64,000 nt of DNA from Bergeyella zoohelcum ATCC 43767. GTDB taxonomy: Bacteria; Bacteroidota; Bacteroidia; Flavobacteriales; Weeksellaceae. Below are positions 6,935-49,399 of the stretch, piece after piece. Within the stretch, counting starts at the first letter, position 1, and every line of letters begins with the position of its first letter. Under the pieces are notes generated by a model. That model was not told where the DNA came from. It saw nothing but the letters and a program-made list of their open reading frames with translations, and ran no database searches. The stretch is taken from positions 977,755 to 1,041,754 of the forward strand of contig NZ_JH932293.1 of assembly GCF_000301075.1 (NCBI RefSeq). Direction: 5' to 3'. Position numbers and translations under genes: made by a program.

Positions 6935-7699
6935 ATGAGATTATTAGACAGGATTTGTTTTAAGCAATATAAAAACCAATGGAGTTCCGTTTTAGATGAG
7001 TTATTGGCGAATTATTCTTTCGCTCAGCATGAAGCTGGTGATGAGTATAGGCTGATGAGCTCGGCGGTATATTCGTCTAATATAGAAGGAAATACCATTG
7101 ACCTCAATTCTTATATGAATGGGAAAATGGCGAAAGAAATTTTTGGTAAGGAAAAAGAGATGAAAGAGATTGATGATTTGGTAAAGGCTTATCAGTTTGC
7201 AAAGGAAAATCCGCTACATGAGACTAATTTTTTAAAGGCTCATTCATTGCTTTCAGAAGAACTATTAATAAAATCACTTAGAGGAAAATACAGAAATGAA
7301 AAGGTAGGTGTTTTTGGTGCGGAAGGATTGGTCTATTTAGCTGTAGAAGAACAGTGGGTGCCTCAGGAAATGAGTAATTTGTTTAAAGAAATAGAAACAC
7401 TGCTTCATACAGATTTAAATACCATAGAAATTTTTTATTTTGCTTCCATGATTCATTTGAGATTGGCACATATTCATCCTTTTAGAGATGGCAATGGACG
7501 AGCAGCTCGGCTTTTAGAAAAATGGTTCTTAGCGAAAAAAATGGGCGAAAAATTTTGGCAAATCAGTGCTGAAAAATATTATAAAACACACCAAAGTGAA
7601 TATTATAAAAACCTAAATATAGGTATGGATTATTACGCTTTAGATTATGAAAAATCTTTACCATTCCTAATGATGCTACCACAATCTTTAAAAGAATAA
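6935..7699 (+). CDS. Fic domain protein with N-terminal inhibitory helix
   Basis: 254 residues. The catalytic Fic motif is HPFRDGNGRAAR at about residue 180-191, intact including the catalytic His. Near residue 47 is SSNIEGN, the S/TxxxE(G/N) inhibitory motif, which makes this a class II (self-inhibited) Fic protein. Fic proteins transfer AMP or another phosphate-containing group from a nucleotide to hydroxyl side chains. The target cannot be predicted. No antitoxin is seen, as expected for class II. It sits between two paralogous membrane protein genes with gaps of only 14 and 10 bases, so it is probably co-expressed with them. Confidence 0.93.
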   Translation: MRLLDRICFKQYKNQWSSVLDELLANYSFAQHEAGDEYRLMSSAVYSSNIEGNTIDLNSYMNGKMAKEIFGKEKEMKEIDDLVKAYQFAKENPLHETNFLKAHSLLSEELLIKSLRGKYRNEKVGVFGAEGLVYLAVEEQWVPQEMSNLFKEIETLLHTDLNTIEIFYFASMIHLRLAHIHPFRDGNGRAARLLEKWFLAKKMGEKFWQISAEKYYKTHQSEYYKNLNIGMDYYALDYEKSLPFLMMLPQSLKE

Positions 7700-8870: not shown

Positions 8871-10598
8871 ATGAACACAATAGACAAGGCCAAACTTTGG
8901 CTATCAGAACCTTTTGACAAAGAGACCCAAGAAAAAGTACAAGCCTTAATGAATGATAACCCTGCTGAGCTAGAAGATGCTTTCTATAAAGCATTAGAAT
9001 TCGGGACGGGTGGAATGCGTGGTATTATGGGCGTAGGAACCAACCGACTCAATAAATACACACTGGGGCAGGCCACACAAGGCTTAGCGAATTATTTGCA
9101 TCAGCAGTTTCCCAATGAAGAAATTAAAGTGGCCATTGCTTATGATGTTCGCCACAACTCCAAGGAGTTTGGAAAAATAGTGGCGGATGTACTCACAGCC
9201 AATGGGATACAAGTACTTTTATTTAAAGCACATCGTCCTACGCCAGAGCTTTCTTTTACCGTAAGAGATAAAAAATGTAATGCAGGTATTGTACTTACCG
9301 CTTCGCATAACCCTCCTGAATACAATGGATACAAGGTCTATTGGAATGATGGGGCTCAGGTAGTACCCCCAAATGATGAAAATATCATTAAAGAGGTATA
9401 TGCTACACAGTTTGAAGATATTAAGTTTAATGGAAATGATGATTTAATAGAATGGATAGGGGAAGAGCAGGATGATGTATATATTGATGCTTGTATAGAG
9501 AATTCGCTTTACCAAAAAGATAAAATCGGTTATGAAGATTTGAATATTGTCTTTACTTCCATTCATGGTACCACTTATACCACCATCCCTAAAGCCTTAC
9601 AAAAAGCAGGATTTAAGAAAATAGATTTGGTAGCAGAACAGATGATTCCGAGTGGTAATTTCCCTACTGTGGAAAGCCCAAACCCTGAAGAACCTGCCGC
9701 ACTAGAAATGGCAATGGATTTGGCAAAAATTACGAATGCTGATATTGTCATCGGTACAGACCCTGATGGCGATAGATTGGGCATTGCGGTGAGAAATTTG
9801 GATGGAGAAATGGAACTGCTCAATGGAAATCAGTGCAATACTTTACTTACCTACTATATCCTTGACCAATGGAAAAAAGCAGGAAAAATCGCTGGAAAAG
9901 AGTTCATCGGTTCTACCATCGTAACTTCTGATATCTTTTTTGACATTGCTGAAAAATTTGGTGTAAGTTGTAAAGCGAGTCTTACTGGTTTTAAATGGAT
10001 AGGAAAGATGATTCGTGAAGCAGAAGGTAAGGAAAAATTCATCTGCGGAGGCGAAGAAAGTTTCGGGTTTATGACAGGAGATTTCGTGAGAGACAAAGAT
10101 TCATGTGGCTCTATCCTCACTGCCTGCGAAATAGCAGCATGGTGTAAGGCCAATGGCAAAACACCGTATGAATACCTGATAGACATCTATAAAGAGGTGG
10201 GACTGTACTATGAAGGACTTATCAATGTAGTAAGAAAAGGGCGTGAAGGTGCGGAGCAAATTCAGCAAATGATGAAAGACTTCCGTGAAAATCCACCTAA
10301 AGAAATTGCAGGGAGTCCAGTAGCGGAAATCCGTGATTATAAGGAGCAAACCAAACTATGGGTTTCAGAAAATAAAACGGAAGCCATGGCAGACATTCCT
10401 AAATCTAATGTATTAATCTTCTATACGGAAGAGGGTACTAAAGTATGTGTACGCCCATCGGGTACCGAACCGAAAATCAAGTTTTATGTTTCGGTAAAAG
10501 AAAACATTGCTTCTACTGAAGATTTCCGAACTCAAATCAAAGCATTGGCTCAAAAAATAAATGAAGTGAAAAAAGCACTTGGGCTGAATGATGAATAA
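8871..10598 (+). CDS. phosphoglucomutase/phosphomannomutase (alpha-D-phosphohexomutase)
   Basis: 575 residues, full length for the PgcA-like family. The phosphoserine loop TASHNPPEYNG lies near residue 144, the metal loop DPDGDR near 302, the sugar-specificity loop GGEESFGF near 395 and the phosphate-binding RPSGTEPKIKFY near 530. It interconverts hexose 1- and 6-phosphates, feeding nucleotide-sugar and glycogen or cell-wall precursor synthesis. Whether glucose or mannose is preferred cannot be decided here. It stands alone, followed by a 22-bp tandem repeat. Confidence 0.95.
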   Translation: MNTIDKAKLWLSEPFDKETQEKVQALMNDNPAELEDAFYKALEFGTGGMRGIMGVGTNRLNKYTLGQATQGLANYLHQQFPNEEIKVAIAYDVRHNSKEFGKIVADVLTANGIQVLLFKAHRPTPELSFTVRDKKCNAGIVLTASHNPPEYNGYKVYWNDGAQVVPPNDENIIKEVYATQFEDIKFNGNDDLIEWIGEEQDDVYIDACIENSLYQKDKIGYEDLNIVFTSIHGTTYTTIPKALQKAGFKKIDLVAEQMIPSGNFPTVESPNPEEPAALEMAMDLAKITNADIVIGTDPDGDRLGIAVRNLDGEMELLNGNQCNTLLTYYILDQWKKAGKIAGKEFIGSTIVTSDIFFDIAEKFGVSCKASLTGFKWIGKMIREAEGKEKFICGGEESFGFMTGDFVRDKDSCGSILTACEIAAWCKANGKTPYEYLIDIYKEVGLYYEGLINVVRKGREGAEQIQQMMKDFRENPPKEIAGSPVAEIRDYKEQTKLWVSENKTEAMADIPKSNVLIFYTEEGTKVCVRPSGTEPKIKFYVSVKENIASTEDFRTQIKALAQKINEVKKALGLNDE

Positions 10599-10599
10599 A

Positions 10600-10709
10600 A
10601 CTTAGCCAAGAGTTAGAAAAGACTTGGCTAAGAGTTAGCAAAGACTTAGTTAAGAGTTAGCAAAGACTTAGCTAAGAGTTGGGAAAGACTTAGTTAAGAG
10701 TTGGGAGAG
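10600..10709. repeat. five tandem 22-bp repeats
   Basis: Five units of the type ACTTAGCTAAGAGTTGGGAA(AG), each exactly 22 bases, with a few substitutions between units and a sixth partial unit. They begin within two bases of the phosphohexomutase stop codon. No spacers, so this is not a CRISPR. Another 22-bp tandem array lies at 26630-26717 with a different sequence. Confidence 0.95.
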
Positions 10710-10841
10710 ACTTACGCATGTTTTTCATTTCTCTTGTTGTGAGAAGATTATAAAATACGCCACATTATCCTACTGAGCGAAGCGGAAGAGTGAACCCAAC
10801 TGAAGTAAATAACTTTGCAAGGAATTATTCCGAAAATAAAA

Positions 10842-17017: not shown

Positions 17018-17320
17018 TTATTTTAGCATATCTGCTACATATGGAAGAAGTGCCAAGTGTCTTGCTCTCTTAATAGCTGCAGATACTTTTCTTTGGTATT
17101 TTAGAGAGGTGCCTGTGTATCTTCTTGGAAGGATTTTACCTTGCTCATTTACAAATTGTAATAGGAAGTTAGCATCCTTGTAATCTACATACTTAATTCC
17201 GTACTTCTTAAATCTGTCGTATTTCTTTTCAGATTTTGTATTGATATCTAGTGGGGTAAGAAATTTTACTTCTGATTCACCACCTGCGGCAGCCTGTTGT
17301 GCCAATTCATCTATTGCCAT
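17018..17320 (-). CDS. rpsR: 30S ribosomal protein S18
   Basis: 100 residues, slightly longer than E. coli S18 because of an N-terminal extension rich in Gln and Ala. The core shows [32 protein letters not shown] and [13 protein letters not shown], the S18 signature. It lies 27 bases after rpsF. It pairs with S6 in the platform of the small subunit. Confidence 0.98.
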
Positions 17321-17347
17321 AATTTTTTGTTTTTAGGGGATTAAAGA

Positions 17348-17689
17348 TTAAGCTTTAGCAGTTTTAAGTTTAGCTCTTCTTGTTACTGCGTACTCTACTG
17401 CGTACTTGTCTAGTTTAGTAGTCAAGTAACGGATTACTCTCTCGTCGCGTTTGAATGCTGTTTCTAGCTCTGCTACGATGGTTCCTTCACCTTTGAATTC
17501 TATAAGGGTATAGAATCCATTCTTTTTCAACTGAATTGGGTACGCCAATTTTTTCAGTCCCCAGTTTTCTTTAGCAACGATTTCACATCCTTTTTCTTTC
17601 AAAAGGTCTTCGAATTTTTTCACTGCTTCCTCCACCTGCGCGTCAGATAGAACGGGAGTTAAAATGAAAACAGTCTCGTAATTGTTCAT
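17348..17689 (-). CDS. rpsF: 30S ribosomal protein S6
   Basis: 113 residues, normal length. [16 protein letters not shown] at the start, [20 protein letters not shown] in the middle and [11 protein letters not shown] near the end are S6 signatures. First gene of rpsF-rpsR-rplI, behind a consensus promoter. The leader is only about 20 nt, too short for an S6:S18 binding RNA motif. Confidence 0.98.
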
Positions 17690-17717
17690 AATTTTTTGTA
17701 TTAAATATTTCGAGGTG

Positions 17718-17748
17718 CAAATGTAATACTTTTTTATTACTCTGCAAA
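17718..17748 (-). promoter_or_regulatory. consensus promoter of rpsF-rpsR-rplI
   Basis: On the minus strand TTTG (17745-17748), 19 bases, then TACATTTG (17718-17725): the exact Bacteroidota -33/-7 consensus. A dispersed repeat copy begins 18 bases upstream of the -33 box. Confidence 0.88.
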
Positions 17749-17765
17749 ATTTAATCTTCTAAGGT

Positions 17766-17922
17766 TAGGTTAAACGCACGAAATCCTATTTTTATAGGGT
17801 ACTCAATAAAAAATAATTGAATATCAATACATTTAAATTTGCTCTTAATCACTTTTACAAAAAGGGTCTGAAATTTAAATATTTGATTATTAATGTATTA
17901 TAAATTTTATCCGTTTACCCTA
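17766..17922. repeat. dispersed MITE-like repeat, copy 1
   Basis: 157 bases closely similar to 40601-40759 in the same orientation. The ends are imperfect inverted repeats: TAGGTTAAACGCAC on the left and CCGTTTACCCTA on the right (compare GATGCGTTTACCCTA in copy 2). The interior is AT-rich with AATACATT and AATGTATT as inverted arms. No open frame. Features fit a miniature inverted-repeat element. Confidence 0.85.
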
Positions 17923-18012
17923 CTTCTAAAGTAATTTTGAATATGTATGCAATGATTCTGATTCGGTATGATAATCAAATAAAGATAACATAAAAAAGAA
18001 AGAAGGAAAGCA
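17923..18012. repeat. 90-bp repeat, copy 1 (inverted partner at 32543-32632)
   Basis: Reverse complement of 32543-32632 with two visible differences over 90 bases. It follows the MITE-like repeat directly. No gene or RNA recognised in it. Confidence 0.92.
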
Positions 18013-18102
18013 TTCAATGCTGGTAATCAATAATGTAAAAAACAAAATCATAAGTAGAACTTTTGCTGTGATAAATAAGGGAACCCCTTTTACGGATACT
18101 CC

Positions 18103-18153
18103 TAGATTCAACTTATAAAAGTAACTTTCCGTTATTATTAATTGTTTTCAAAT
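18103..18153. repeat. 51-bp repeat, copy 1 (inverted partner at 44758-44808)
   Basis: Reverse complement of 44758-44808 with one difference. It ends two bases before the serine hydrolase stop codon. The 90 bases at 18013-18102 before it hold nothing I recognise. Confidence 0.92.
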
Positions 18154-18154
18154 T

Positions 18155-19531
18155 TTATTCCTTTTCAAAATCAAACGGGAGTTCGTAAAGAATGTTGAGT
18201 ATGCCAATGGTAATTTCATTGTTTGAAAACATCCCCCGTGCATTGACACACAAGCTGATAGACAAATCATCTTCGGGATTGTAGGTCATAAGTGCGTCCG
18301 TGCCAAGAGTAGTGCCGCCGTGTCCGTAAGAAGTCTTGTTGTAAAAAGGAGCTTTCATCACGCACAGCCCCCAAGTTTTTTCTTCTGGCAACATCTGTTG
18401 TAGGGTTTCTTTTTTTAGCAACTTGCCTTTGAAAAGAGCTTCTACAAATCGGTTCAAATCGGTTGTAGTGGCGGTAATATCCCCTGCCCCTAAGGCATTT
18501 ATAAAATTAAAATCCTTTACCTCTTGTAGCTGAGTTTGGTGTAGGTTGTACGAAGCAAAAATATTCGTAGGTCTGTCTAAGGCAGAAAAAGTATTGTCTA
18601 AATTCAGAGGTTTTGCAATTCGTTCGCGGAGCAATACATTAAACGGTTGTTGGGTGGTTTGTTCCAAAATTTTGCACAATAGATAATATGCCGAGTTGGA
18701 ATATTTTTGTTTTTCCCCAGGTTGAAAGTCCACGCCCTGTTTTACAATGGTATCGTAAATTACTTGAGGTGCAAAAGCCTTTTCCGTGAGCCATTCTCCA
18801 GTAACATAATCCTTCAGACCACTGGTATGATTCAGCATCTGTTGCAGCGTAATGTTTTGGGCATTGGGCATTTTGGGGAAGAATTTTGCCAACTTGTCAT
18901 CGAGTTTTAGCGTGCCTTTTTCCACTTCCTGCATCAGCATTGTTGCCATAAACAGCTTGGTAATCGACCCGATTTGATACGCCGTTTGTTGGTTGTAGTT
19001 TTTTGTAGGCAAAAACTCCTGCCCAAAGTGTTTTTTATACACTTCTTTCCCTTTTCGGAAGATAGAAATACTCCCTGCTATCTTCTGTTTTTCTACCAAA
19101 TAATCAAGATAAGCGGATAATTTTTGGGTGTTGATGGCACGGTTCCCCAAATCTGCAATAACAGGGTCTTCCACTGCTTTTATTTCCTCGTTGGTTTTTT
19201 CCAATACCAAAGGAAAATCTTTCCCTTGCTTGAAAGTTCCTGTGATTTTACCGTCTTTTAAAACGCCTTTAAACGAGGCTTGTAGTGTTGAAATTTCTAC
19301 CGTTAGTGCATTGTTTTCAAAAACGGTTTTGCTGGTAGGAATACCCATAGAAGTTTGTTTCGGACTGTAAGCCGTGGTGCTATAGCCGTTTTCGGTGGCT
19401 TTTATTTCAAATACCAAAGGGAGTTTTGTACCTTGAATATCCAAATCGCCTTTCCATCTTCCTACAATTTGACCAAATACGCCTTGTGTAAAGCACAAGG
19501 TAACAAGGAATAATAAAAATCTTTTCAACAT
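18155..19531 (-). CDS. secreted serine hydrolase, class C beta-lactamase/DD-peptidase fold
   Basis: 458 residues. A signal peptide (about 1-20, ending VFGQ) is followed by a lipocalin-like beta domain (GRWKGDLDIQGTKLPLVFEI) up to about 110. The serine hydrolase domain then has SITK (SxxK), YSNSAYYLL (YxN) and YGHGGTTLG (HxG). The three motifs are those of the family of EstB, D-aminopeptidases and AmpC. A true beta-lactamase role is not implied. It is the last of three minus-strand genes with small gaps. Confidence 0.9.
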   Translation of the reverse strand: MLKRFLLFLVTLCFTQGVFGQIVGRWKGDLDIQGTKLPLVFEIKATENGYSTTAYSPKQTSMGIPTSKTVFENNALTVEISTLQASFKGVLKDGKITGTFKQGKDFPLVLEKTNEEIKAVEDPVIADLGNRAINTQKLSAYLDYLVEKQKIAGSISIFRKGKEVYKKHFGQEFLPTKNYNQQTAYQIGSITKLFMATMLMQEVEKGTLKLDDKLAKFFPKMPNAQNITLQQMLNHTSGLKDYVTGEWLTEKAFAPQVIYDTIVKQGVDFQPGEKQKYSNSAYYLLCKILEQTTQQPFNVLLRERIAKPLNLDNTFSALDRPTNIFASYNLHQTQLQEVKDFNFINALGAGDITATTTDLNRFVEALFKGKLLKKETLQQMLPEEKTWGLCVMKAPFYNKTSYGHGGTTLGTDALMTYNPEDDLSISLCVNARGMFSNNEITIGILNILYELPFDFEKE

Positions 19532-19550
19532 GATATTTTAGAATTAAAAA

Positions 19551-20114
19551 TTAAAAATAAGCTTGTGTAATAGAATTTAATATAAATAGGAGTACAAAAA
19601 ACACGGCGGTATAGATTCCGTTTTTCAGATGGGTAGCGGTTTTGAAGCCGTTGTACATCAGTGTTACGGCATACACCACAAAAAACAACGCAACGAGGGT
19701 GGAAATTGCAAAACTAATGACTTCCAATAGATTAGAAAACAATTTTTCCAGATGGCTTGCCCTAGCAACAACTGCTTTATTCAGCTGATGAATGGCAGGA
19801 ATATTCGTAAAAAACACAAGAATAGATAGTGGTAACAAGCTTACCAGAAAGCTATTGAGCACATCGATGAAGCGTGTTTTGAGGTTAATGATTTTTGCCA
19901 ATACAAAAAAGCAGAGGACATTAAAGAAGAATATGCCGTTGGTAATTTGTAGGTTTTTGAGCACATTGGTTTCACCGTCGGCAATGTGTAGTAGGCCATT
20001 CATTCGGCTATCGAAGAGGAACATTGCCAAGTTCATCAGTCCCCAAGAGACCAAGCCTATCAAGAGTAACTTCTGTTCAGAATATTTGACGAAAGGATTA
20101 AAGAAATTTTTCAT
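19551..20114 (-). CDS. YIP1-like membrane protein
   Basis: 187 residues with about five membrane helices (roughly 18-36, 55-75, 86-106, 135-160, 165-183). The N-terminal FFNPFVKYSEQKLLLIGLVSW and the later GFKTATHLKNGIYTAVFFV resemble YIP1-domain proteins of Bacteroidota. It lies 3 bases after the DUF2089 gene and 19 bases before the serine hydrolase. Function unknown. Confidence 0.65.
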   Translation of the reverse strand: MKNFFNPFVKYSEQKLLLIGLVSWGLMNLAMFLFDSRMNGLLHIADGETNVLKNLQITNGIFFFNVLCFFVLAKIINLKTRFIDVLNSFLVSLLPLSILVFFTNIPAIHQLNKAVVARASHLEKLFSNLLEVISFAISTLVALFFVVYAVTLMYNGFKTATHLKNGIYTAVFFVLLFILNSITQAYF

Positions 20115-20117
20115 TTT

Positions 20118-20408
20118 TTACTTGTTTTCTAAAGATTCTTGATTGAGTTGTTTTATTTTTTCGATTAAATCGTCCATTTTGTTCCGCATGGTGGGGTAGG
20201 AAAGTTCGGCTTGTTTTGCCATTTCTTTGATGCTTCCACTGGATAGGAAAAAATTGAGGATAAAGGCTTGCTCTTCGCGGTTGAGTTTTAAGTACAGCGG
20301 GAGTTCGTACTCGCCTGAAACTTCGGTTGCACAGGTTGCACATCGCATCCGGCTCACATTTAGCGGACTTTCGCAACTGGGACAAACGGTAGGGATTTTA
20401 GCAGTCAT
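20118..20408 (-). CDS. DUF2089 family zinc-ribbon/HTH regulator
   Basis: 96 residues. A zinc ribbon with CPSCESPL and CATCATEV (four Cys) precedes a helix-turn-helix (LNREEQAFILNFFLSSGSIKE to SYPTMRNKMDDLIEKI). This is the layout of DUF2089 proteins, small presumed regulators. First gene of the operon with the YIP1-like and serine hydrolase genes, so it may control them. A second, frame-shifted reading of this stretch is a shadow. Confidence 0.88.
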   Translation of the reverse strand: MTAKIPTVCPSCESPLNVSRMRCATCATEVSGEYELPLYLKLNREEQAFILNFFLSSGSIKEMAKQAELSYPTMRNKMDDLIEKIKQLNQESLENK

Positions 20409-20616
20409 TTGTAATACAATGTTTAATTTTTCGGAGATAAATATAGATAAAAATGTTTTATATTTTAATATAATTAAAAAGTTTTTTAATAAAGTTAAAA
20501 TAAAGTTTTGTATAAAAGAATTTTTATTGGAGGAAGATAGAGGGGTATTGTCGCGTTTTAAAGAGAAATAAGTGAATTACTTTATTGTTTCTATTGAAGT
20601 TTTTTGATAGGTTAAA

Positions 20617-20645
20617 ACAAAAAAAGCTGTCCCTATTGGGACAGC
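20617..20645 (-). terminator. terminator of the hibernation-factor gene
   Basis: Perfect 8-base stem GCTGTCCC / GGGACAGC with a 4-base loop and, on the minus strand, a T-rich tail. Confidence 0.85.
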
Positions 20646-20670
20646 CTGAAAAAATCCTATGAATACTATT

Positions 20671-21762
20671 TTAGTATCTTTTTTTCAGTGCGATGTTTCC
20701 TAAATCAGAAATCCATTCTTCATCTACAAAAAGTGTTTTTCCTCCTTTGGAAATTACTTCGTAAGCAATGTGGCTAATGATGTCATCTAATGCACCATGT
20801 TCATTGGCGTCTTCTATGAGTTCAAAATCTCTGTCGCCCACTAGCCTTACAGGTTGCTGATAGAGTTTATTCACGATGAGCAATTCTGCATTTCCATCAA
20901 TCGCAGCTTGGTAAATTTCTAATAAATCTGTAGATAATTTAGACTGTGAAGATGCAGCTTTTACTTCTTCTATGGCCTCTTTTACCCACTCTATTTGTTT
21001 CTCTTTTACCACTTCCCAAGATTGTTTTGCTAAATGCCAAGGAGCGTTATCATTGCCACTATGGTTCACTTCTATAAATCCAATGTACATTTCTGGTCTT
21101 GTACTCGCTTCTAAAAGGGCATGATAGTTCGCTTCAGTAGTTGCTACCACTACTTTTAGGGTTTTATCTTCTGATAAAACAAAATCTACCAACGCCTTGT
21201 CTATATCTCTAAAATGCTCTTTCAGAAGATTATCTACATGGGCAGAGTCACTTTTTCTGATATTAGATGTAGCCACATGAGGAGACTCTCCGAAAGGGAA
21301 CACATGGTTATGCACTTCTTCTTCTACGCTCTCATCATACGCTTTGAAAAGTTGTGTTTTATTTTGGGACAATTGTAAAATAAGGTACTCTCTACTTCTA
21401 TTAAACAATTTGATGAGTGGTTTAATCATGAATTGTTCATCTACGAATACAGAATTTTCCTCTACCGACCAGATAGAGCGTACTATTTCCATGGTTTCAG
21501 CAGAGATAAAAATATGCAAACTATCCAAAAGTTGATTAATATCTACTTTTTTATCTAGTTCGTCTAGTTTTTCTAACACCTTACCTGCTTCATCTCTTTT
21601 TCCAAATTCGTTAGTTACTCTTTCTTTGGCATCAGAGATAAGATTTTTTAGTACGATTTCATCTTGTAAGTTGTCAGGATGCGTTCTGTGTGTGTTTAGT
21701 GAAATAGTAACACATACTTGATTGTTTTCTTCTGCTAATCTTTTTAGTTTTGATACTGTCAT
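20671..21762 (-). CDS. baeRF/Balon-like (AOC03_06830 family) ribosome hibernation factor
   Basis: 363 residues from ATG 21762 (MTVSKLKRLAEE); nine extra residues of the longer frame are not conserved. The N-terminus shows CVTISLNTHRTHPDNLQD and LKNLISDAKERV, the hallmark of bacterial aeRF1/Pelota-like (baeRF) proteins. Three domains of the RF1 fold are expected; no GGQ is present, so it is not a release factor. The Balon family binds the ribosomal A site during stress and starvation. The assignment to Balon rather than another baeRF group rests on my recognition of the sequence. It stands alone with its own terminator. Confidence 0.75.
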   Translation of the reverse strand: MTVSKLKRLAEENNQVCVTISLNTHRTHPDNLQDEIVLKNLISDAKERVTNEFGKRDEAGKVLEKLDELDKKVDINQLLDSLHIFISAETMEIVRSIWSVEENSVFVDEQFMIKPLIKLFNRSREYLILQLSQNKTQLFKAYDESVEEEVHNHVFPFGESPHVATSNIRKSDSAHVDNLLKEHFRDIDKALVDFVLSEDKTLKVVVATTEANYHALLEASTRPEMYIGFIEVNHSGNDNAPWHLAKQSWEVVKEKQIEWVKEAIEEVKAASSQSKLSTDLLEIYQAAIDGNAELLIVNKLYQQPVRLVGDRDFELIEDANEHGALDDIISHIAYEVISKGGKTLFVDEEWISDLGNIALKKRY

Positions 21763-21866
21763 AACGATAAGTTTGATAGCAAAGCTCAATGAAAATATCT
21801 TGCCAAAACATTAGTAATATGCAAATAATGTAAAAGAATAATGGAATTATGAAAGTTATATATTGA

Positions 21867-22052
21867 TTATGGGTAATAGGCACAGCCCCTCCCCACGATT
21901 AAATCTACTTCAAAATGTCCGAATTCTTCATCGGTCAAAACGATTTCAGAGTGTAAACTAATTGGTTTTCGTCCTCTTCCCAGCCCTATTTGGAGGAGAA
22001 GGAGTTGTTTTCGATGCTTGAGTTTATGCCGAAGATTTTGGTATAAATCTCC
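21867..22052 (-). pseudogene. IS30-family transposase fragment
   Basis: The minus strand has 61 codons in one frame: GDLYQNLRHKLKHRKQ, GRGRKPISLHSEIVLTD, then EFGHFEVDLIVG and a stop. These match the middle of IS30 transposases, including the first catalytic Asp in FE-V-D. The N-terminal helix-turn-helix and the rest of the catalytic domain are missing. Upstream it abuts a GTCAAACGCACGAAAT end sequence shared with the MITE-like repeats. Confidence 0.75.
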
Positions 22053-22055
22053 TAA

Positions 22056-22071
22056 GTCAAACGCACGAAAT
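22056..22071. repeat. solo end of the MITE-like repeat
   Basis: GTCAAACGCACGAAAT is identical to the left end of the repeat at 40601-40759, but the rest of that repeat is absent. It adjoins the IS30 fragment. Confidence 0.7.
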
Positions 22072-22366
22072 TTAATATTTTTGTTTTTATGGATTTAGTG
22101 AGTTATTCTCTTGTCCTTAAAATCGAATCAATCAGAATTATTTGAGAATGTAGTCAGTGGGTTTAAAGCTAGATCAAGTGATTGTTTTTCAGAAGAATGG
22201 GGGTGTTCTTCGTCTCGATTTGAAACTCCTAAATGCCGTATTTTACAGGAGAAAGGTGTGTTGCTTGACGAAAATTTATTGGTTTGGGCGGGGTTGAAAA
22301 CCTTGATTACCTTATACACAAAATATTTATCACATATCAAATAGTTAATAAGTTTTCTGAAGAGAC
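22072..22366. other. intergenic, no gene recognised
   Basis: Frames of about 70 codons exist on both strands (plus 22111-22344, minus 22128-22340) but neither resembles a known protein, and they shadow each other. Probably non-coding or decayed mobile DNA. Confidence 0.5.
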
Positions 22367-22966
22367 TTATTTATTCTCAAGGATTTTTTTTCGGATTCGG
22401 GTAAGGGCTTGTCGGGTAATCCCCAGAAAGGAACAGAGATGCGACACGGATATTCTACTAAGCAAATCTGGATTTTCATCAATGAATTTCAAGTAGCGTT
22501 CTTCGGCAGCATAAAAAAGGAAGCCTTCCATCCTTGTAGAAGTACGCAGGAAAGTTTCCTCCAGAATCAAGCGTATAAAGCGTTCAAAAGCAGGGATTTT
22601 ATCTGCACAATCTATCAAATGTTCGTAGGGGAAATTAATCACCAAACTATCTTCTATTGCCTGAAAAGAAAACCGACTTGGCAATGGATGCTCCAAAATT
22701 TTATAATCGGCCACGGGGCCATTCTCCTTATTAAAAGCCACCGTGATTTCCTCTCCCTCGGGCGTGGTATAAAAAGTACGGATGAGCCCTTTGAGAACAT
22801 AACCGATTTGGGTTTGATTTTCATTTTGCTCCAAATAAAAAGCCTTAGCAGGAACTTCAGAGAGATAGAGCTTCTTACCAATGTATTCTAAATCCGTTTC
22901 GGTAAGCTTCGGACAACGCATTTTCATGTATTTCAGATAGTCTTTTACCAGTGCATCCATGCTCAC
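22367..22966 (-). CDS. Crp/Fnr family transcriptional regulator
   Basis: 199 residues. The N-terminal cyclic-nucleotide-binding-like barrel spans about 25-125 (IGYVLKGLIRTFYTTPEGEEI, NFPYEHLIDC). A C-terminal helix-turn-helix follows (RISVSHLCSFLGITRQALTRIRKKI). No Fe-S Cys cluster is apparent, so an oxygen sensor like Fnr is unlikely. Ligand and targets unknown. ATG 22966 or 22960 could be the start. The gene ends the tandem with the VOC gene upstream on the same strand. Confidence 0.93.
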   Translation of the reverse strand: MSMDALVKDYLKYMKMRCPKLTETDLEYIGKKLYLSEVPAKAFYLEQNENQTQIGYVLKGLIRTFYTTPEGEEITVAFNKENGPVADYKILEHPLPSRFSFQAIEDSLVINFPYEHLIDCADKIPAFERFIRLILEETFLRTSTRMEGFLFYAAEERYLKFIDENPDLLSRISVSHLCSFLGITRQALTRIRKKILENK

Positions 22967-29146: not shown

Positions 29147-29550
29147 ACAGAAAGAAGAAGAGTGGTTTCTTGTTTTGAAAGGCTTATGGCGAATAGCTTA
29201 TGGCGGTTGGCAGTTAGCTTTCTAACTTCCAAATTCTAATCTCCAACATCTAATTTCTAAAAGCAGTAGGCAGGAAGCAATGGGCAGGAGGCTTTTGATC
29301 TGACCTCGTAGAGGTCATATGTTTATAGTGGAATATTTTCCTATATAACATACGACCCCGAAGAGGTCTCATAACAAAACGGTGGCTGTTGCTATATACA
29401 TTTGACCCCGCTGTAGTCATACATGCAGTAGAATTTGAGCGACTGGTTTCTAGCGAATAGCTTTCTAGCTTCCAAATTCTAAAATCATTATACATTCTAC
29501 TTTGTACGCGGTACAATCTCCAACATCTAAAATTAACTTATAAAAAACTT
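29147..29550. other. intergenic low-complexity and REP-like sequence
   Basis: Contains degenerate short repeats such as GCGAATAGCTT, CTAACTTCCAAATTCTAA and AATCATTATACATT, also present at 32390-32525. Three palindromes lie within it (separate entry). No gene recognised. Confidence 0.6.
29300..29418. repeat. three REP-like short palindromes
   Basis: GACCTC-GTA-GAGGTC at 29301-29315, GACCCC-GAA-GAGGTC at 29354-29368 and GACCCC-GCT-GTAGTC at 29404-29418, spaced about 50 bases. Each is flanked by ATATG/ACATA and TATA-like words. The palindrome at 3331 is of the same type. Confidence 0.7.
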
Positions 29551-29581
29551 TTTGCATATTAGAAAACTTTATCTATCTTTG
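29551..29581 (+). promoter_or_regulatory. consensus promoter ahead of the AC microsatellite
   Basis: TTTG (29551-29554), 19 bases, TATCTTTG (29574-29581): exact Bacteroidota consensus. Transcription would start about 29588, 80 bases before the AC tract and 600 bases before the fibre gene. Confidence 0.88.
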
Positions 29582-32381: not shown

Positions 32382-32542
32382 ATCAGTTTATGGCTATTGG
32401 CAGATGGCTATTGGCTATTAGCGAATAGCAGTTAGCTTCTAATTTCTAAAATCATTATACATTATACTTTGTACATTGTACGATCTCTAACATCTCATTT
32501 CTAACTTCTAAAATCATTATACATTGTAATTACTAACATAAA
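32382..32542. other. intergenic degenerate low-complexity repeats
   Basis: Words such as GGCTATTGGC, AATTTCTAAAATCATT and ATACATT recur here and at 29147-29550. No gene seen. Confidence 0.5.
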
Positions 32543-32632
32543 TGCTTTCCTTCTTTCTTTTTTATGTTATCTTTATTTGATTATCATACCGAATCAGAGT
32601 CATTGCATGCATATTCAAAATTACTTTAGAAG
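32543..32632. repeat. 90-bp repeat, copy 2 (inverted partner at 17923-18012)
   Basis: Reverse complement of 17923-18012 with two visible differences. A weaker similarity may extend some 20 bases to the left. Confidence 0.92.
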
Positions 32633-40600: not shown

Positions 40601-40759
40601 TTAGGTCAAACGCACGAAATCCTATTTTCATAGGGTACTCAATAAAAAAATAATTGAATATCAATACATTAAAATTTGCCCTTAATCACTTTTATAAAAA
40701 GAGTTTAAGAATTAAGTATTTGATTATTAATGTATTATAAATTTGATGCGTTTACCCTA
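40601..40759. repeat. dispersed MITE-like repeat, copy 2
   Basis: 159 bases closely similar to 17766-17922, same orientation. Left end TTAGGTCAAACGCACG, right end GCGTTTACCCTAG. No coding frame. Another weakly similar end (TTAGGCACACGAAATCC) lies at 40773-40789. Confidence 0.85.
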
Positions 40760-40897
40760 GAAGAGAATTAGATTAGGCACACGAAATCCACTGGCTTAGT
40801 TCTTATGAATTCTTATTTAAAAGCCAATTGTACTTAAGAATAGAATATTTCCTTTTATTTTTTCTATTTTTTCTACTTTTCTTTAAATATTTAATAG

Positions 40898-44713: not shown

Positions 44714-44757
44714 ACAATAGGCGTTTAGCGATTGGTGTTTATGTCCAAAAGAGGTGT

Positions 44758-44808
44758 ATTTGAAAACAATTAATAATAACGGAAAGTTGCTTTTATAAGT
44801 TGAATCTA
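44758..44808. repeat. 51-bp repeat, copy 2 (inverted partner at 18103-18153)
   Basis: Reverse complement of 18103-18153 with one difference. Its right end coincides with the start of the truncated HU/DUF4469 frame. Confidence 0.92.
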
Positions 44809-45462
44809 AGTATTAATTGTATTAAGGGGAGTGTAGGCATAGAAGACATCATCAAAGAACTCATCAAGGAGGGAATGGAAATAAAGCCAGAAACCGCCGA
44901 AGATATCATCAAACGCTTCAACCGAAAAACATCCGAAATGGTACTCAATGGCTACAGCGTGAATACAGGGCTGGTAGTGATGAGACCTGCCATTAAGGGC
45001 GTTTTCTATGACAAAACTTGGGACAAGGAAAAACACTCGGTGTATGTGAACATCAACCAAGGAACAGCACTGAGAAAGCAAATTCAGGACACCAAAGTGG
45101 AGATTTTGGGCGAACAAGCCTCTCCTATGAGTATCTTCAGCATCATAGACAAAGCCACTGGAAAGACCGATGGTACTCTGACTAAAGGCAAAAACGCTGA
45201 AATCAAAGGCACTTATATCAAAATCGCAGGAGAACATCCAGATAACGGTATCTATTTCACCAATATAGACACTCAAGAGAAAACCAAAGTAGAGGCTTCG
45301 GACATCGTTATCAATGATCCATCTAAACTAATGATTTTAGTCCCTGCCACGCTCACCACTGGAACTTACGAACTGAGCATTACCACGCAGTTCAGCAACA
45401 ATAAGGTTACCATCAAAGAACCTCGGACAGATATCTTGGGCGTGAATATCAGCATTCAATAG
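44809..45462 (+). pseudogene. HU-like/DUF4469 DNA-binding protein, 5'-truncated
   Basis: The frame reads SVGIEDIIKELIKEGMEI, TAEDIIKRFNRKTSEMV, GVFYDKTWDKEKHSVYVNIN, then a DUF4469-like C-terminal beta domain (IKGTYIKIAGEHPDNGIYF, LMILVPATLTTGTYEL). In related proteins about 28 residues (usually containing a first strand and Asp/Asn-Pro loop) come before GIEDII. Here that part is replaced by the repeat at 44758-44808, and the only starts are a TTG at 44800 or ATG 44875. It is therefore probably an inactivated nucleoid-type protein gene, although a shortened product is possible. Confidence 0.6.
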
Positions 45463-48013: not shown

Positions 48014-48049
48014 AATCCAGTAGTTTTTATTCAACTACTGGATTTTTTA
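48014..48049 (+). terminator. terminator of the receptor gene
   Basis: Perfect 10-base stem AATCCAGTAG / CTACTGGATT followed by T-run. Confidence 0.88.
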
Positions 48050-48111
48050 AATGACAATATAACAAAAAATGGTGCTTAAAAACCTTGTAAAGCATTGTCT
48101 TTTATAGACTT

Positions 48112-48151
48112 ATAAGAGTTATAATGAAAGTGGTTTCATTATAACTCTTAT
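48112..48151 (+). promoter_or_regulatory. perfect 18-bp-arm hairpin just before the transposase start
   Basis: ATAAGAGTTATAATGAAA and TTTCATTATAACTCTTAT pair perfectly around a 4-base loop, ending 3 bases before the ATG at 48155. In a transcript entering from outside it would hold the start region in a stem and reduce transposase translation, as in several IS families. The arms contain a TATAAT-like word, so they might also hold a promoter. Confidence 0.75.
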
Positions 48152-48154
48152 TTT

Positions 48155-49129
48155 ATGTCCAAAACGAATAAAAAATGTCCAGTTTGTGATTCTAATCACA
48201 TCATCAAAAAAGGAAAAAGAAATGGAAAACAACGCTTTCAATGTGGAGATTGTCAGGCAAATTTTACGATTAAAAACATTGGTGTAAAAAGAAAAAATCA
48301 ATTCATTTGGTTCAGAAAATGGATAATGGAAAGGCAAGTCTATAAAACCCTTTCGAGGGATAGCTCAATGAGCCAATCTACCCTTCAAAACCTCTTTAAA
48401 CATTACCTTTCACAAGTTCCTACCCTCAGCATCAAAAGCAAGACAAAGGTTCATCTCTTGATTGATGGCACCTACTTTTCCAATGGATTATGCCTGATAC
48501 TCTACTACGATTATGACATTCGATATGTGCAACTTTACCGCCAAACCAACAAGGAAAAACTTCGTGATATAAAGCAAGATTTGGAAAACTTAAAGAAGCT
48601 GAATGTGGCAGTTTACAGTGTAACCTGCGATGGGCATAAATCTATTTTAGGAGCGGTAAAAAAGGTGTTTCCAGAGGTGATTATCCAAAGATGTTTAGTG
48701 CATATTAAACGACAGATTAAGAACTATTTAAGTGGTAGCCCAAAACATTTTATTAGCCAACAGCTTTTGTGTTTATCCAAAGAAATTACGCATCTAAAAA
48801 CCAATGAACAGGCTAACGATTGGGTAAATAGATTTTACCAGTGGTATGTTGAAAATCAATATTTTATAGAAGAAAAATCAATGAATGAAGAATCTGGATT
48901 TCAGTGGTTTAAACATAAAAATCTACACTTAGCTACTTATCATATTATCAATGCCTTACCCAATATGTTTGCATATCTGAAAGATAGTGAAATCCCTTAT
49001 ACTACCAATCGTTTAGAAGCCTATTTTACGCATTTGAAAGAGAAATTAACCTTGCATAGAGGACTTCGTTTTGAGGCTAAAAAGAACTTTATAAAATGGT
49101 ATTTATATTTTAAAAATCAAGGGGGATAA
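48155..49129 (+). CDS. transposase, IS256-like variant with N-terminal zinc ribbon
   Basis: 324 residues. N-terminal zinc ribbon with CPVCDS and CGDCQ (Cys pairs at 8/11 and 27/30). MULE-type DDE core: LIDGTYFSNGL (first Asp), VTCDGHKSI (second Asp), QRCLVHIKRQIK and a C-terminal TTNRLEAYFTHLKE (catalytic Glu). This matches the zinc-binding variant of IS256 transposases. Full length without frameshift. Confidence 0.88.
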   Translation: MSKTNKKCPVCDSNHIIKKGKRNGKQRFQCGDCQANFTIKNIGVKRKNQFIWFRKWIMERQVYKTLSRDSSMSQSTLQNLFKHYLSQVPTLSIKSKTKVHLLIDGTYFSNGLCLILYYDYDIRYVQLYRQTNKEKLRDIKQDLENLKKLNVAVYSVTCDGHKSILGAVKKVFPEVIIQRCLVHIKRQIKNYLSGSPKHFISQQLLCLSKEITHLKTNEQANDWVNRFYQWYVENQYFIEEKSMNEESGFQWFKHKNLHLATYHIINALPNMFAYLKDSEIPYTTNRLEAYFTHLKEKLTLHRGLRFEAKKNFIKWYLYFKNQGG

Positions 49130-49154
49130 GGTTTTTTTAGCCATAGGGTTCATC

Positions 49155-49204
49155 CGATAGTTTTAATAAAAAAGGGTGAGAAAAACTCACCCCTAAAACT
49201 ATCG
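49155..49204. terminator. nested hairpin downstream of the IS
   Basis: Outer stem CGATAGTTTTA / TAAAACTATCG encloses GGGTGAG / CTCACCC. It may stop transcription on the minus side. The rest of 49205-49399 shows no gene; a 68-codon minus frame there has no relatives. Confidence 0.55.
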
Positions 49205-49399
49205 TTTTGAACATTGATTGTATTGCTGACAATGAACTATGTTCGTAACCTTCGTAAAAGCTATTCGCTTTTTCTCGCTTATTCCTCAGCAGAGCTTGTT
49301 TCCTCTTCCAATCAATGTGCGAAATATAAGCATTTTTTATCAATTATAAAAGTACCATTTTTTACCACATTGCCTTTTAAATTAAAAAGATAGGAAAAT

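What the first reader, a model, noticed from the sequence alone, without database searches (positions are those of the whole stretch)
17766..18153. Intergenic mosaic built from three segments, each repeated elsewhere in the window
Between rpsF and the serine hydrolase gene lie, in order: a 157-bp MITE-like repeat (partner 40601-40759), a 90-bp repeat (inverted partner 32543-32632) and, after 90 bases, a 51-bp repeat (inverted partner 44758-44808). Three different partners in one gap point to a hotspot for nested insertion, or to fragments of one larger element that has been scattered.
Basis: seen in the sequence. Interest (0 to 1): 0.65.

Follow-up and report, generated by a model that had tools for sequence, protein, structure and literature searches.

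The report
Graveyard of three transposon remnants
The gap between two bacterial genes is filled with leftovers of three unrelated jumping genes, ending where a three-gene block shared with a distant relative begins; the parts are of ordinary kinds, but together they record how a genome seam was built.

Summary
In detail: three repeats sit side by side in the rpsF/serine-hydrolase gap, far above chance. They are not pieces of one scattered element. Segment A (17766-17922) is a 157-bp MITE with the ends of an ISAs1-family IS that is complete in the same genome; a 9/10-bp direct repeat flanks it. Segment B is longer than reported (17923-18102): the dead C-terminal tail of an IS110-family transposase, clear from 17992 on; its partner copy carries the same lesion. 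Segment C (18101-18165) is the right end of an IS30-family IS and runs into the last codons of the hydrolase gene. None of 12 other matched places holds two segments. The mosaic ends at the edge of a 2.34-kb, three-gene block that is 93% identical in a MAG whose rpsF region is 66% identical, so the gap is also a seam of laterally exchanged DNA. In that MAG the same block edge meets an end of a fourth IS type. Best reading: independent insertions, then decay and deletion, at a tolerated site upstream of the rpsF promoter. Ordinary in kind. One oddity: this IS30 left only short end stubs (34-114 bp, plus one 25-bp match) and no internal pieces.

The parts
17348..17689 (-). rpsF (ribosomal protein S6), first gene of rpsF-rpsR-rplI; the mosaic lies upstream of it
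   Evidence: PF01250 105 bits. A flavobacterial-type promoter (TTTTG ... TACATTTG, consensus recalled) can be read by eye on the minus strand at about 17719-17752.
17756..17765 (.). left copy of the presumed target duplication of the MITE, CTTCTAAGGT
   Evidence: 9 of 10 identical to 17923-17932; a fraction 0.00037 of 100,000 random flank pairs score as well
17766..17922 (+). A: 157-bp MITE with ISAs1-family ends
   Evidence: 4 copies in the genome, the others 91-92%; first 19 bp match the left end of the complete ISAs1 element at 94.7% (E 1.4e-4); right end 78% over 32 bp (E 0.021)
17923..18102 (+). B: degenerate C-terminal tail of an IS110-family transposase (frame EGKHSMLVINNVKNKIISRTFAVINKGTPFTDTP); 17923-17991 assigned only weakly
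   Evidence: profile of 8 relatives' C-termini: 54.6 bits, i-Evalue 2.6e-17 in the window's six frames; upstream part best E 0.014; a relative is PF02371, 83.6 bits
18101..18165 (-). C: right end of an IS30-family IS (positions 1068-1131 of the 1135-bp stretch L025:1301-2435); overlaps the last codons of the hydrolase gene
   Evidence: 94% over 64-65 bp; transposase NF033563, 159.1 bits
18155..19531 (-). serine hydrolase (beta-lactamase fold); ends DFEKE* where the L035 copy ends DFEEEAK*
   Evidence: PF00144 172 bits; junction
18159..20499 (-). 2.34-kb block shared with another lineage: DUF2089 regulator, membrane protein without Pfam match, serine hydrolase
   Evidence: 93.3% identical to L035:5033-7373, while the rpsF region of the two lineages is 66% identical over its main match and the rest of the L035 contig 67-73%
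22053..22308 (+). internally deleted ISAs1 remnant (two pieces, 22053-22107 and 22112-22308)
   Evidence: 98% and 92% to the complete ISAs1 element
32517..32632 (-). second copy of B, diverging after EGKH, with the same internal lesion
   Evidence: 17923-18014 identical but for 2 bases; weaker beyond
40602..40759 (+). second window copy of the MITE A
   Evidence: flanking repeat 7/9 only
44738..44814 (+). second window copy of the IS30 right end (positions 1059-1135)
   Evidence: 90%

Best explanation
The gap is a small IS graveyard. An IS110-family element died and was reduced to its C-terminal tail (B). An IS30-family element came to lie with its right end against that tail; it was later cut down to about 64 bp by a deletion that joined it to the 3' end of the serine-hydrolase gene (C). 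A 157-bp ISAs1-type MITE (A) inserted at the outer edge of B, next to the rpsF promoter, making a 10-bp target duplication. The MITE was most likely moved in trans by the transposase of an ISAs1-family IS that is still complete in this genome. The mosaic's right edge is also the edge of a 2.34-kb three-gene block exchanged laterally with another lineage, so the gap marks a seam. Shown: family identities, copy sets, flanking repeats, the overlap of C with the gene end, the sharp edge of the shared block. Inferred: order of events, the deletion, trans-mobilisation, lateral exchange and its direction.
For: A: 4 copies; left end matches the complete ISAs1 element L034/L098 in 4 of 4 copies, right end in 3 of 4. 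That element's transposase covers the whole NF033564 model (321.6 bits) and it has a 9/9-bp target duplication. Flanking repeats are strong in two A copies (window 9/10, L004 8/8). B: 54.6 bits, relative PF02371; both B copies share the frame break before KKKEGKH. C: positions 1068-1131 of the IS30 stretch, NF033563. Gene end: DFEKE* against DFEEEAK*, with IS30 homology running 18165-18101. Separate copy sets: 12 of 12 other matched places hold one segment only. Seam: 93.3% over 2341 bp, ending at 18159 and 20499; the first 5 kb of L035 finds only three partial matches in this genome, 67-73%, at three places.
Against: No empty site was seen in a close relative (none held). Of four A copies only two have a convincing flanking repeat; L003 has 7/9 (P 0.0085) and L002 none. 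Of the two full-length ISAs1 copies one (L099) has none either. A's right-end matches are individually weak (E 0.006-0.25; none in L004). The left edge of B coincides both with the target site of A and with the edge of the second B copy, which simple insertion does not explain. B upstream of 17992 matches IS110 only weakly (E 0.014). L035 is a MAG contig, so chimerism cannot be excluded. In L035 too the hydrolase end meets an IS end, so the gene's native end is not known.
Confidence: 0.85

Rival explanations
1. The three segments are fragments of one larger element that has been scattered.
For: They abut without unrelated DNA between them.
Against: Three transposase families; none of 12 other matched places carries two segments; the presumed parents of A and C are separate elements.
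Confidence: 0.03
2. An IS carried the hydrolase block (one-sided or composite transposition, or homologous exchange between IS copies), and C is the scar of that capture rather than a bystander.
For: C touches the block edge within a few bases. In L035 a 55-bp stretch 15 bp past the same edge (7389-7443) matches window 48056-48111, score 57 against at most 29 in 200 random pairs. That window stretch lies in the left end of an IS256-variant/IS1249-like IS (transposase 168-184 bits; imperfect inverted repeat 48046-48077 with 49350-49381, 78%). An ISAs1 relic lies 1.55 kb beyond the far edge.
Against: The IS at the edge is of a different type in the two genomes. No IS30, ISAs1, A or B match better than E 0.02 in L035, and no IS30 match in window 20301-22500 around the far edge.
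Confidence: 0.2
3. The gap is a selected regulatory region: A or C is kept because it acts as a terminator for the hydrolase operon or insulates the rpsF promoter.
For: A folds better as RNA than 200 shuffles (z -2.9); it lies between the hydrolase 3' end and the rpsF promoter.
Against: As DNA z is only -1.6 and 10 of 200 shuffles fold as well; terminal inverted repeats fold in any MITE; no Rfam match up to E 5 in 17300-18500; copies of A and C lie beside unrelated genes.
Confidence: 0.1
4. The site is a true insertion hotspot with a preferred target sequence.
For: Three elements in 400 bp; relic clusters occur elsewhere (ISAs1 directly after an IS30 left end at L099; a reading frame that looks like an IS1 tail, family name recalled, 8 bp from an IS30 end at L041).
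Against: Different families with different target rules (recalled); the flanking repeats of A, L004 and the complete ISAs1 share no motif by eye. Tolerance of insertions in a gap explains it without targeting.
Confidence: 0.15

Closest known systems
ISAs1-family IS and MITEs mobilised in trans
   Same: A has ISAs1-type ends, an 8-10-bp flanking repeat in two copies, no transposase gene, and a complete ISAs1-family element in the genome
   Different: About 157 bp; the interior is not a simple deletion of the partner (no match over 32 bp). I found no paper describing an ISAs1 MITE in the searches 'ISAs1'+'MITE' (6 papers listed, passages read of 2) and 'miniature inverted-repeat transposable'/'Flavobacteriia'/'ISAs1' (7 papers, listing only)
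IS110-family (bridge-RNA-guided, recalled) elements
   Same: B encodes the conserved C-terminus of the family's transposase
   Different: Only a dead tail is left; no PF02371 match over the cut-off was found in the genome
IS30-family IS
   Same: C is the right end with the tail of the transposase gene
   Different: 64-bp solo end; both near-full copies in the genome have broken reading frames
MITEPye1 of Paracoccus yeei (PMC11578231, passages read)
   Same: Small non-autonomous element with TIRs and direct repeats, mostly intergenic, able to fold, attributed to an IS acting in trans
   Different: IS1182-type ends, not ISAs1

Membership tests
ISAs1-family MITE (segment A) | terminal inverted repeats shared with an autonomous ISAs1 element | tested here: met
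   left 19 bp 94.7-100% in 4 of 4 copies (E 3e-6 to 1.4e-4); right end in 3 of 4 copies: window 78%/32 bp, L002 83%/18 bp, L003 89%/18 bp (E 0.006-0.25), not detected in L004; all four end in CCCTA
ISAs1-family MITE (segment A) | 8-10-bp target duplication (range recalled) | tested here: met
   met in 2 of 4 copies: window 9/10, L004 8/8; L003 7/9 (P 0.0085), L002 none
ISAs1-family MITE (segment A) | no transposase gene; multiple copies; ISAs1 transposase in the same genome | tested here: met
   157 bp, 4 copies; NF033564 321.6 bits, model 1-314 of 314, in L034
ISAs1-family MITE (segment A) | actual mobility in trans | not testable with these tools
   needs a transposition assay
IS110 transposase remnant (segment B) | homology to the IS110 transposase C-terminus | tested here: met
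   54.6 bits, i-Evalue 2.6e-17; relative L058 PF02371 83.6 bits, NF033542 73.8 bits, below its full-length cut-off of 140
Intact IS110 element | transposase and bridge RNA present | tested here: not met
   no PF02371 match over cut-off in the genome, best 12.1 bits; no Rfam match in the gap, though I did not check that Rfam models this RNA
IS30 right end (segment C) | terminal sequence at the right end of a full-length IS30-family element | tested here: met
   positions 1068-1131 of the 1135-bp query stretch; NF033563 159.1 bits
One larger element containing A, B and C | segments travel together | tested here: not met
   12 of 12 other matched places hold a single segment (17 of 71 candidates scored)

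The most novel reading that the evidence does not exclude
Segment C is one of a set of 'solo ends' of one IS30-family element made by a specific process, such as aborted or one-ended transposition, rather than by random decay. The genome search found 7 right-end stubs (55-114 bp, each cut at a different inner point), one 25-bp right-end match and 3 left-end stubs (34-68 bp) of this IS, no internal-only piece, and two near-full copies; most stubs are no more diverged than the second near-full copy. Such stubs could mark seams between core genes and acquired blocks; in L035 the same block edge meets a 55-bp stub of another IS type.
Probability: 0.12. Interest if true: 0.5.

Novelty: new member of a known kind. 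Interest (0 to 1): 0.28.

Why it matters
It turns an apparent mystery mosaic into a readable history: three dead mobile elements piled at the seam between a core ribosomal operon and a laterally exchanged gene block, with one remnant overlapping the end of a host gene. It adds a MITE with ISAs1-type ends whose presumed helper is still complete in the same genome. The run of very short IS30 ends is a testable lead on how IS relics form.

Tried and rejected
Scattered parent element: rejected, no other matched place carries two segments. Plasmid or phage origin: blastn of the gap found one weak match in the plasmid collection (about 46 bases, E 9e-3) and none in phages; a wider query (17350-18600) hit only the rpsF part of two records. 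The hydrolase block has no plasmid match and the hydrolase no relative in viral contigs. The ISAs1 element as DNA matches one plasmid record weakly; its protein matches 856 plasmid records, all below 60% identity. RNA gene: no Rfam match up to E 5.

Matches of A in other genera (41 other genomes of 320; only 2 candidates per genome were scored) are 27-49 bases long, most of them over an AT-rich part of A (positions 102-152), a few over 41-76, and none reaches either end of A. I read them as low-complexity matches, not as MITE copies, after looking at the 28 printed. Matches of B (16 of 320 genomes including this one, 2 candidates per genome scored): 8 other genomes match the IS110 tail, one more (G280) reads as IS110-like by eye, and I dropped six as too short to assign. 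Empty site in a sister: not possible; the candidate L035 proved distant, which exposed the shared block instead. Papers: one search listed six, passages read in two; seen as listings with the start of the abstracts only.

Full report
Observation. Across the genome (2.33 Mb, 7 contigs) segment A has 4 places, segment B has 2 and segment C has 9, window included, all with E at or below 5e-17. The full 421-bp query finds 13 places; apart from the window itself, each of the other 12 carries only one segment (17 of 71 first-look candidates were scored).

Segment A. A pattern search with A's left end found two further places that share the end but not the interior. Both are full-length copies of an ISAs1-family insertion sequence (L033/L099 and L034/L098), 1147 bp from TAGG to CCTA. 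The transposase of the L034 copy scores 321.6 bits on NF033564, over the whole model. L034 has a perfect 9-bp target duplication; L099 has none. A begins with 19 bp that match this IS at 94.7-100% in 4 of 4 copies. The right end matches in 3 of 4: window 78% over 32 bp, L002 83% and L003 89% over 18 bp, each weak by itself (E 0.006-0.25); blastn did not detect it in L004, though all four copies end in CCCTA. The window copy is flanked by CTTCTAAGGT and CTTCTAAAGT (9/10; fraction 0.00037 of 100,000 random flank pairs do as well), L004 by a perfect 8-bp repeat, L003 by 7/9, and L002 by none. A is therefore best read as a MITE of the ISAs1 type, probably moved by that transposase; mobility itself was not tested.

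Segment B. In 8 other genomes of the family the part from about position 70 to 150 of the B query (17992-18073) matches at 73-82%. In 8 of the 10 loci I translated, my search pattern found the C-terminus of an IS110-family transposase; L055 and L062 were not caught by the pattern. L058's fragment scores 83.6 bits on PF02371 and 73.8 bits on NF033542, below that model's full-length cut-off of 140. A profile of the 8 C-termini finds the window segment and nothing else convincing in the window's six frames (54.6 bits; the 48.0-bit hit is the same place in the overlapping chunk). It does not find the second B copy, which diverges after EGKH. The two copies of B share the same frame break, so one dead remnant seems to have been duplicated; how is not known. 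No PF02371 match over the cut-off is left in the genome.

Segment C. C matches positions 1068-1131 of a 1135-bp stretch that holds a near-full IS30-family element (L025:1301-2435; NF033563, 159.1 bits). It lies against B at 18101-18103 and reaches 18165, inside the serine-hydrolase frame. The hydrolase reads DFEKE* here and DFEEEAK* in L035; the last two codons and the stop fall in the stretch that aligns to IS30. This points to a deletion that removed most of the IS and the old end of the gene. Since L035's copy of the gene also meets an IS end (below), the native end is not known.

The seam. A genome-contig search for the hydrolase found two loci: L036 from Chryseobacterium aahli (48%) and L035, a MAG contig (90%). 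The L035 match covers 2341 bp at 93.3% and stops at window 18159 and 20499. In 100-column slices identity is 95-100% from about 20317 down to 19218 and 84-96% from there to about 18218. The block holds a DUF2089 regulator, a membrane protein without a Pfam match and the hydrolase. Yet that MAG's rpsF region matches at 66% (and 77% over a 138-base stretch of the query), and the first 5 kb of the L035 contig finds only three partial matches in this genome, 67-73%, at three places; the longest (69%) is a hemE-like gene (name recalled). The block was therefore probably exchanged laterally, unless the MAG contig is a chimera. GC is 28.6% over 17500-17999 and 38-40% over 18000-19499.

L035's own block edge. 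IS30, ISAs1, A and B have no match better than E 0.02 in L035. But 15 bp past the hydrolase-side edge, L035 7389-7443 matches window 48056-48111 (score 57; at most 29 in 200 random pairs). That window stretch is upstream of a transposase of the IS256-variant/IS1249 kind (NF048019 168.3 bits, over its cut-off; NF033544 184.1 bits, below its cut-off of 300) and overlaps an imperfect inverted repeat, 48046-48077 with 49350-49381 (78%). So in both lineages the block's hydrolase side abuts an IS end, of different families. An ISAs1 remnant lies 1.55 kb past the far edge in the window.

Reading. Independent insertions, decay and one deletion explain the anatomy. Unexplained: B's left edge is the same in both copies and coincides with A's target site. 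Also unexplained: the IS30 search found 14 matches, namely one full-length stretch, one copy split in two pieces, seven right-end stubs of 55-114 bp, one 25-bp right-end match, and three left-end stubs of 34-68 bp. No internal-only pieces appeared. If cut points were uniform along the element, seven of seven right-end stubs at or below 114 bp would have a probability near 1e-7. This is a rough test: cut points need not be uniform, and only 40 of 77 first-look candidates were scored.

Verdict. Real and well resolved, made of known kinds of parts. The lateral seam and the solo ends lift it slightly above routine.

Noticed in passing
genome C1, (window 18101-18165 and 44738-44814 among them): Seven right-end stubs, one 25-bp right-end match and three left-end stubs of one IS30-family element, all 114 bp or shorter, no internal pieces; one right-end stub (L041) lies 8 bp from a frame that reads as an IS1-type transposase tail (family name recalled).
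   Followed up: partly
window 18159-20499 and L035:5033-7373: Three-gene block (DUF2089 regulator, membrane protein, serine hydrolase) 93% identical between lineages whose rpsF region is 66% identical.
   Followed up: partly
window 48046-49381 and L035:7389-7443: IS with a transposase of the IS256-variant/IS1249 kind (48155-49129) and imperfect inverted repeats; a 55-bp relative of its left end lies 15 bp past the hydrolase-side edge of the shared block in L035.
   Followed up: partly
window 22053-22308: Internally deleted ISAs1 remnant in two pieces.
   Followed up: partly
window 40760-40790: Right after the second MITE copy stands a second, decayed left end of the same type (TTAGATTAGGCACACGAAATCC, 17 of 22 by eye), as if two copies had inserted in tandem.
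   Followed up: no
window 10597-10717: Tandem array of an 11-bp unit alternating roughly between AAGAGTTAGMA and AAGACTTAGYT.
   Followed up: no
window 29466-29557 and 32433-32524: Low-complexity repeat built of words such as CTTCTAAAATCATTATACATT, 76% alike; the second copy lies next to the second B segment.
   Followed up: no
L099 (C1:1732753-1733934): A full-length ISAs1 copy sits directly behind a 34-bp IS30 left end and has no target duplication.
   Followed up: no
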